Notes under the pieces: model-generated
Told to the model about the DNA's origin: nothing
The model's database searches: none
Seen by the model: only the letters and a program-made list of their open reading frames with translations
In this document: positions 49,433 to 60,998 of the stretch, piece by piece
How positions within the stretch are numbered: position 1 is the stretch's first letter
Layout of the letters: each line of letters starts with the position of its first letter
Source: Bryobacterales bacterium
GTDB lineage: Bacteria > Acidobacteriota > Terriglobia > Bryobacterales > UBA6623
Assembly (NCBI GenBank): GCA_028819255.1
Contig: JAPPMB010000064.1
Span: 1 to 64,000 of the forward strand
Length of the DNA stretch: 64,000 bases
Direction: 5' to 3'
Translations under genes and position numbers: made by a program

Positions 49433-49981
49433 GTGGCCTACATCGAAACCATCGCCCCTGACAGGGCCCGCGGAGCCTTGCTTGTTCAGTACGAAATGGC
49501 GGAGCTCCGAGCGGGAAAGGTCTGGAACATCCTGCGGATCATGAGTCCTAATCCGGGGGTGCTGAGCGCCTCGATGGCCCTTTACCTGCAGGTGATGCAT
49601 GGACCGTCCCCCCTCACCAGGGGTCAGCGCGAAATGCTGGCCGTGACGGTCTCCAAGGCAAACGCCTGCCACTATTGAGTGGATGCGCACTGGCACGACC
49701 TCCGGGCTGAGGTCGATCGCGGACTTGCCGACAGGGTGCGGGAGGACTGGCGCAGCGCCGGCCTGGACCGTGCTACGGTGGCCCTCCTGGCGTACGCGGA
49801 AAAGCTCACGCTTTCCCCAGCTTCGTCGACTGCCGGCGACGTCGACAGGCTGCGCGATGCGGGCTGGGATGACCGTGCCATCCACGACGCCGCCCAGGTC
49901 GTCGCCTACTTCAACTACATCAATCGAGTCGCCGACGGCCTCGGGGTTGATCCCGAGCCCGATTCCGGAACCAAAGCGTGA
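49433..49981 (+). CDS. AhpD-like/carboxymuconolactone-decarboxylase-family selenoprotein (CxxU)
   Basis: A 182-aa peroxidase-related AhpD-fold protein whose reading frame contains a single TGA (49676-49678). Before it: RARGALLVQYEMAELRAGKV and SPLTRGQREMLAVTVSKANA; after it: VDAHWHDLRAEV, LLAYAEKLTLSP and VVAYFNYINRVADGLGVDPE. In this family the join is C-x-x-C-x-x-(A/H)-H; here it is A-C79-H-Y-U82-V-D-A-H86, so the TGA replaces the catalytic cysteine exactly. Both halves are in one frame and together give the normal family length. A hairpin 18 bases after the TGA fits a bacterial SECIS, and tRNA-Sec is encoded at 60.9 kb. The likely role is thiol/selenol-dependent peroxide or related reductase, using C79/U82. 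Start GTG 49433 is the most upstream option that keeps the family N-terminus (YIETIAPDRA). Confidence 0.88.
49697..49714 (+). promoter_or_regulatory. candidate bacterial SECIS hairpin
   Basis: Perfect 6-bp stem GACCTC/GAGGTC with loop CGGGCT. The stem begins 18 bases after the in-frame TGA and the loop guanines lie 26-28 bases from it, inside the window reported for SelB-bound bacterial SECIS elements (an apical-loop G about 16-37 bases downstream of UGA). It lies within coding sequence, as is normal in bacteria. Confidence 0.65.
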
Positions 49982-60903: not shown

Positions 60904-60998
60904 TGGCGGAAGCTAGTGGGAGTCGAACCCACCCTTGACGCGGAGCGCCAAACAGCGGTTTTGAAGACCGGGCCCGACACCGGCCGGGATTAGCTTCC
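60904..60998 (-). tRNA. selC: tRNA-Sec (anticodon TCA), CCA encoded
   Basis: Selenocysteine tRNA, about 95 bases including encoded CCA. The 8-bp acceptor stem GGAAGCTA/TAGCTTCC (60998-60991 and 60915-60908) is followed by discriminator G and CCA. The anticodon loop CTTCAAA carries TCA (60964-60962), reading UGA. A long variable arm can form a 7-bp stem (TTGGCGC with GCGTCAA, one G-U) and the T arm is GTGGG-TTCGACT-CCCAC. The 8-bp acceptor stem, long extra arm and UCA anticodon together identify tRNA-Sec. It implies SelA/SelB/SelD elsewhere in the genome and supports the in-frame TGA of the AhpD-like gene at 49.4 kb. Confidence 0.96.

What the first reader, a model, noticed from the sequence alone, without database searches (positions are those of the whole stretch)
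49433..49981. AhpD-like selenoprotein with a CxxU active site
Seen: one frame runs from 49433 to 49981 with a single TGA at 49676-49678 between ACHY and VDAHWHD. Both sides are conserved AhpD/CMD-family sequence and the TGA replaces the catalytic cysteine. A 6-bp hairpin sits 18 bases downstream. Known: Sec in place of a redox cysteine has been reported in AhpD-like proteins, and bacterial SECIS elements lie just after UGA. Inferred: a true selenoprotein that automatic annotation would split into two short genes.
Basis: partly seen in the sequence, partly recalled or inferred. Interest (0 to 1): 0.88.

Follow-up and report, generated by a model that had tools for sequence, protein, structure and literature searches.

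The report
AhpD-like selenoprotein with CxxU active site
This is a real bacterial redox enzyme of the AhpD family in which an in-frame UGA codon is read as selenocysteine at the active site; it belongs to an already catalogued selenoprotein family, and relatives elsewhere sit in operons that suggest it takes electrons from a central metabolic enzyme complex.

Summary
The finding holds. Window 49433-49981 encodes a 182-aa AhpD-like protein (TIGR01926, 132 bits) interrupted only by TGA at 49676-49678, in the motif C79-H-Y-U82. The 45 distinct homologous sequences compared (43-77% identity; Acidobacteriota, Planctomycetota, Chloroflexota, Actinomycetota) all carry TGA at that codon; more distant relatives carry Cys. 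This rules out a sequencing error or local nonsense mutation. The genome has selA, selB, selD and tRNA-Sec, the last inside the window (60904-60998, minus strand). The downstream hairpin (49696-49715) meets the published bacterial SECIS rules and is conserved far beyond what the protein requires: 39 of 45 sequences form all 6 pairs, against 7.1 ± 2.4 expected, and the loop Arg codon is CGG or CGT, never CGC. The predicted fold matches AhpD-like crystal structures (D. radiodurans DR1765, Z 24). One point I did not find in the library: in seven actinomycetotal genomes the Sec-AhpD gene directly follows E1beta and lipoyl-E2 genes of a 2-oxoacid dehydrogenase, pointing to lipoyl-E2 as electron donor. 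That link is inferred for the window's organism, where the genes are not adjacent.

The parts
49433..49981 (+). Sec-containing AhpD-like (TIGR01926) coding sequence, 182 aa, GTG start, terminal TGA
   Evidence: TIGR01926 132 bits; single copy in genome; alignment; fold
49676..49678 (+). Sec codon UGA (U82), second position of the CxxU redox motif
   Evidence: TGA at the aligned codon in 45 of 45 distinct close homologous sequences; Cys in remote ones
49667..49669 (+). Cys79 codon (TGC), partner of Sec82 in CxxU
   Evidence: Cys79 invariant in all 38 aligned members
49696..49715 (+). bSECIS hairpin: 7-bp stem, 6-nt loop CGGGCU, loop starts 24 nt after UGA
   Evidence: rules from PMC13188914
60904..60998 (-). 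tRNA-Sec (selC), anticodon TCA, in the same window
   Evidence: ARAGORN; Rfam RF01852 71.2 bits, over the cut-off of 47

Best explanation
A genuine selenoprotein. SelB carrying Sec-tRNA binds the hairpin just downstream of UGA82, and the ribosome inserts selenocysteine there instead of terminating. The product is an all-helical AhpD-like thiol/selenol oxidoreductase with a C79-x-x-U82 centre, and with Glu67 and His86 conserved as probable proton-relay residues. By homology it reduces peroxides, or a partner peroxidase, through a selenenylsulfide intermediate. The likeliest electron donor is the lipoyl group of a 2-oxoacid dehydrogenase E2, recharged by E3 with NADH. Shown computationally: the Sec codon, the SECIS element, the machinery and the fold. 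Inferred: catalysis, substrate and donor. The confidence given is for the selenoprotein claim; for the peroxide/thiol reductase function it is about 0.65 and for the lipoyl-E2 donor about 0.4.
For: Single in-frame TGA inside a TIGR01926 protein. TGA in all 45 distinct close homologous sequences from four phyla, and in every congener that has the gene. Sec sequences of this group form one supported clade (99/97). selA, selB, selD and tRNA-Sec over cut-off. selB present in all Bryobacterales genomes with a TGA-bearing AhpD-like gene; none of the 9 genomes without selB has one (Fisher p 0.008, genomes not independent). selB over cut-off in 27 of 34 genomes of homologues from other phyla, with further fragments at contig edges in fragmented MAGs. 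Hairpin: all 6 pairs in 39 of 45 sequences against 7.1 +/- 2.4 (max 17 in 2000 trials) under synonymous-codon resampling; C-G to U-A compensation in three sequences; loop Arg codon CGT/CGG in 43 of 43 although CGC is 53% of Arg codons. AlphaFold pLDDT 95; matches 2prr, 2oyo, 6k40, 3c1l, 2pfx at Z 24-25. Donor: E1beta-E2-AhpD(U) adjacency in 7 actinomycetotal genomes, with gene ends abutting or overlapping. The window's genome has two E2 genes. M. tuberculosis AhpD is reduced by lipoyl E2 (reviewed in PMC8945050).
Against: No protein-level or selenium-incorporation data. In the window's genome the gene is not next to E2; its neighbours are an aminotransferase and BON/era/ybeY/phoH, and only two congeners examined share that neighbourhood. 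TIGR01926 proteins have no settled physiological substrate. One fold neighbour (Bmp8, 6ohi) is a debrominase, so the substrate need not be a peroxide.
Confidence: 0.96

Rival explanations
1. Pseudogene or sequencing error: the TGA is a nonsense mutation or a miscall of TGC/TGT.
For: A single-base change would turn TGC or TGT into TGA; the window alone cannot exclude it.
Against: The same TGA is present in all 45 distinct close homologous sequences across four phyla and in all eight congeners that have the gene, with protein conservation on both sides.
Confidence: 0.01
2. Two genes: termination at TGA followed by re-initiation at the GTG directly after it (49679), giving two separate polypeptides.
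For: The codon after TGA here is GTG, so an ORF caller finds two ORFs.
Against: In 35 of 45 homologues the next codon is ACG, ATT, ATA, ACC, CTG and so on, not ATG/GTG/TTG. The break falls inside the helix carrying the active site. It would not explain the SECIS-type constraint.
Confidence: 0.01
3. UGA is recoded to another residue (for example Trp, as in code 4) or is simply leaky.
For: In-frame UGA within a conserved protein.
Against: The same gene ends in TGA. The scan of the window found no other convincing internal TGA. Full Sec machinery is present, and the aligned residue elsewhere is Cys, not Trp.
Confidence: 0.01
4. The protein is a Sec enzyme, but with a function other than peroxide reduction or lipoyl-linked electron transfer, for example reductive dehalogenation like Bmp8, or thioredoxin-linked disulfide reduction.
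For: Bmp8 debrominase (6ohi/6ohj, Z 19.7) has the same fold and a catalytic Cys82. The window's gene has no E2 neighbour.
Against: The closest solved relatives are AhpD-like peroxidase-related proteins (27-37% identity; Bmp8 18-19%). DR1765 CxxC mutants complement an H2O2-sensitive strain poorly (PMC8945050). E2 operons occur in relatives.
Confidence: 0.3

Closest known systems
AhpD-like selenoprotein, TIGR01926 / COG2128, CxxU (PMC1088965; PMC2398784 'AhpD-like 1'; PMC13188914 table)
   Same: Same protein family by HMM (TIGR01926), same CxxU motif with Sec as the second redox residue, SECIS hairpin downstream.
   Different: Nothing essential. This is a member from a Bryobacterales (Acidobacteriota) genus; the 2026 review does not mention Acidobacteriota.
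D. radiodurans DR1765 (6k40) and D. geothermalis 2oyo, AhpD-like CxxC proteins
   Same: Same fold (Z 24-25) and 35-37% identity; conserved Cys at both redox positions.
   Different: They use Cys where this protein uses Sec.
M. tuberculosis AhpD (1knc, 1gu9)
   Same: CxxC-type centre and an AhpD core fold; its lipoyl-E2 donor is the model for the mechanism proposed here.
   Different: Distant (Z 12.3, 11-12% identity), a different AhpD subfamily; the window protein scores far below the TIGR00777 cut-off (20.9 against 191.95 bits).
NF041238 AhpD_rel_CFYUT (seleno)protein
   Same: AhpD-related selenoprotein with CxxU.
   Different: About twice as long; the window protein scores 58.8 against a cut-off of 175 and is not a member.
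HCPFU AhpD-like Sec proteins of the same order (L079-L097)
   Same: Sec at the same codon and a SECIS-like hairpin.
   Different: About 29-42% identity, a different hairpin (GCCGC-GGTC-GCGGC), and a separate place in the tree.

Membership tests
Bacterial selenoprotein | In-frame UGA aligned with Sec or Cys in homologues | tested here: met
   45 of 45 close homologous sequences TGA, remote ones TGC/TGT
Bacterial selenoprotein | SelA, SelB, SelD and tRNA-Sec in the genome | tested here: met
   SelA 437 bits, SelB 358 bits, SelD 280 bits, tRNA-Sec 71 bits, all over cut-off
[quoted passage not shown]
   7 bp, 6-nt loop CGGGCU, 24 nt, -10.2 kcal/mol; conserved beyond the synonymous null
Bacterial selenoprotein | Selenium incorporated in the expressed protein | not testable with these tools
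   Needs 75Se labelling or mass spectrometry
TIGR01926 peroxidase-related (AhpD-like) | Score over the curated cut-off of 81.8 bits | tested here: met
   132.4 bits, residues 7-177 of 182
TIGR01926 peroxidase-related (AhpD-like) | AhpD-like helical fold with CxxC/U centre | tested here: met
   AlphaFold pLDDT 95; Z 24-25 to 2prr, 2oyo, 6k40, 3c1l, 2pfx
NF041238 AhpD_rel_CFYUT | Score over the curated cut-off of 175 bits | tested here: not met
   58.8 bits
TIGR00777 AhpD proper | Score over the curated cut-off of 191.95 bits | tested here: not met
   20.9 bits
AhpD-type peroxidase / lipoyl-E2-linked reductase | Peroxide or AhpC-type substrate reduced with lipoyl-E2 as donor | not testable with these tools
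   Only indirect: E1beta-E2-AhpD(U) gene adjacency in 7 actinomycetotal genomes

The most novel reading that the evidence does not exclude
Sec-AhpD proteins of this clade are dedicated selenium-boosted outlets for electrons from lipoyl-E2 of a 2-oxoacid dehydrogenase: in Actinomycetota they are encoded as a third gene after E1beta and E2, and the Acidobacteriota protein uses an unlinked E2. This would make central carbon metabolism the direct power source of a selenoenzyme antioxidant system.
Probability: 0.4. Interest if true: 0.5.

Novelty: new member of a known kind. Interest (0 to 1): 0.33.

Why it matters
It adds a well-supported selenoprotein from an uncultured Bryobacterales genus that a standard ORF call would split in two. 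The clade's near-invariant SECIS within coding sequence, and its operon link to lipoyl-E2, give a concrete and testable hypothesis for the unknown electron donor of AhpD-like selenoproteins.

Tried and rejected
Rfam scan of the locus found no relevant family. Searched the genome for a second copy of the gene: none. Looked for tRNA-Sec linkage in congeners: none within the stretches fetched, so the closeness of tRNA-Sec in the window is probably coincidental. Looked for conserved operon partners in Planctomycetota: no convincing functional partner among the recurrent neighbours. NF009084 was queried by mistake and its result was not used. Classic covariation is weak because the hairpin sequence is nearly invariant (3 double-changed cells), so the synonymous-codon null was used instead. 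A coding-composition scan for other internal TGAs in the window gave no further convincing selenoprotein.

Full report
Observation. The frame 49433-49981 (plus strand, GTG start) contains one internal TGA at 49676-49678 and ends in TGA at 49979-49981. Reading the internal TGA as Sec gives a 182-aa protein with C79-H-Y-U82-V-D-A-H86. A mechanical ORF list breaks it into 81 and 100 aa. Neither half alone reaches the Pfam CMD cut-off, but the joined protein does (38.9 against 23 bits), with the match running across the TGA.

Family. The joined protein scores 132 bits (cut-off 81.8) to NCBIfam TIGR01926, 'peroxidase-related enzyme', over residues 7-177. It falls well below the cut-offs of classical AhpD (TIGR00777) and of the longer selenoprotein family NF041238. 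All 38 aligned relatives match TIGR01926. AlphaFold gives pLDDT 95 and pTM 0.90, and the model matches AhpD-like crystal structures 2prr, 2oyo, 6k40, 3c1l and 2pfx at Z 24-25 and M. tuberculosis AhpD at Z 12. Glu67, Cys79, Sec/Cys82 and His86 are invariant among the 38. Glu67 and His86 stand at the spacing of the proton-relay Glu118 and His137 of M. tuberculosis AhpD; that correspondence is from my own knowledge and was not checked by superposition.

The codon. The homologues fetched from genome contigs at 43-77% identity (Acidobacteriota, Planctomycetota, Chloroflexota, Actinomycetota) carry TGA at this codon, except L051, a fragment that does not cover it. More remote ones carry TGC or TGT. 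In the window's own genus, 8 of 10 other genomes have the gene; the matched frame carries TGA in all eight, and the codon was aligned to position 82 directly in five. In 35 of 45 homologues the codon after TGA is not a start codon, which excludes re-initiation as the general mechanism. The Sec sequences of this group form one supported clade (99/97) apart from the Cys relatives.

Machinery. The genome (98% complete) has SelA (437 bits), SelB (358 bits), SelD (280 bits) and one tRNA-Sec (71 bits), all above cut-off. The tRNA-Sec lies in the window at 60904-60998 on the minus strand. Among 61 Bryobacterales genomes, the 25 with a TGA-bearing AhpD-like match all have selB (split into two fragments in G020), and none of the 9 genomes without selB has one (Fisher p = 0.008, genomes not independent). 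In other phyla, 27 of 34 genomes holding a TGA homologue have selB over cut-off; some of the rest have only contig-edge fragments.

SECIS. The hairpin at 49696-49715 has a 7-bp stem and a 6-nt loop CGGGCU beginning 24 nt after UGA, with an MFE of -10.2 kcal/mol. It meets the published bSECIS constraints (PMC13188914). To separate RNA selection from protein conservation, I resampled synonymous codons of 45 homologues under their own codon usage. Observed: 39 of 45 with all six pairs. Expected: 7.1 +/- 2.4, with a maximum of 17 in 2000 trials. The Arg codon in the loop is CGT or CGG in all 43 sequences that have Arg there, never CGC, although CGC makes up 53% of Arg codons in these genes; this is the G[G/U] rule of the bSECIS loop. 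Three sequences have a compensatory C-G to U-A change. In L040 the protein has diverged to DFGLES, yet a hairpin remains.

Mechanism. Sec insertion at U82 is as well supported as sequence data allow. For function, the closest studied protein is DR1765 of D. radiodurans, whose loss gives H2O2 sensitivity that CxxC mutants complement poorly (PMC8945050). M. tuberculosis AhpD is reduced by lipoyl-E2 (same paper, citing Bryk 2002). In seven actinomycetotal genomes the Sec-AhpD gene abuts or overlaps the end of an E2 gene (lipoyl, E3-binding and acyltransferase domains), itself preceded by E1beta. In L117/L041 the E2 lies about 600 nt upstream. I found no mention of this link in the papers searched. 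In the window's genome the gene is not next to E2, though two E2 genes exist. The donor is therefore an inference (about 0.4).

Known or new. AhpD-like CxxU selenoproteins were found in the Sargasso Sea (27 sequences, PMC1088965) and in GOS ('AhpD-like 1', COG2128, 299 sequences, PMC2398784), and the 2026 review lists 'AhpD-like protein, TIGR01926, CxxU' (PMC13188914). This is a new member of that known kind.

Noticed in passing
window 60904-60998 (-): The genome's tRNA-Sec gene lies 11 kb from the selenoprotein gene; it was not found near the gene in the congener stretches examined.
   Followed up: partly
L011, L012, L017, L026, L111, L113-L116, L118, L121 (upstream of the AhpD match): E1beta - lipoyl E2 - Sec-AhpD gene order in Actinomycetota with abutting or overlapping gene ends. 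L011 is labelled Acidobacteria, but its genes are closest to actinomycetotal ones, so the record is probably misnamed.
   Followed up: yes
L079-L097 (around the aligned codon): A second, separate AhpD-like Sec group in the same order with motif HCPFU/HCVFU and its own GC-rich hairpin (GCCGC-GGTC-GCGGC) shortly after UGA.
   Followed up: partly
L122-L134, L137: A further TGA-bearing AhpD-like paralogue group in relatives of the actinomycetotal genome, with motif CHYU followed by HHRRGLRR and hairpin GGCGC-GGTCT-GCGCC, whose loop resembles that of E. coli fdhF (own knowledge).
   Followed up: no
L108 2268-4532 (-): SelD in this genome is a 754-aa protein with an N-terminal NADH-dehydrogenase-like part (Ndh-SelD fusion type) and Cys rather than Sec in the SelD active site.
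   Followed up: no
window 51802 (-): phoH and ybeY are adjacent in the same frame, separated by one TGA; this looks like read-through coding in a scan but is an ordinary gene boundary.
   Followed up: yes
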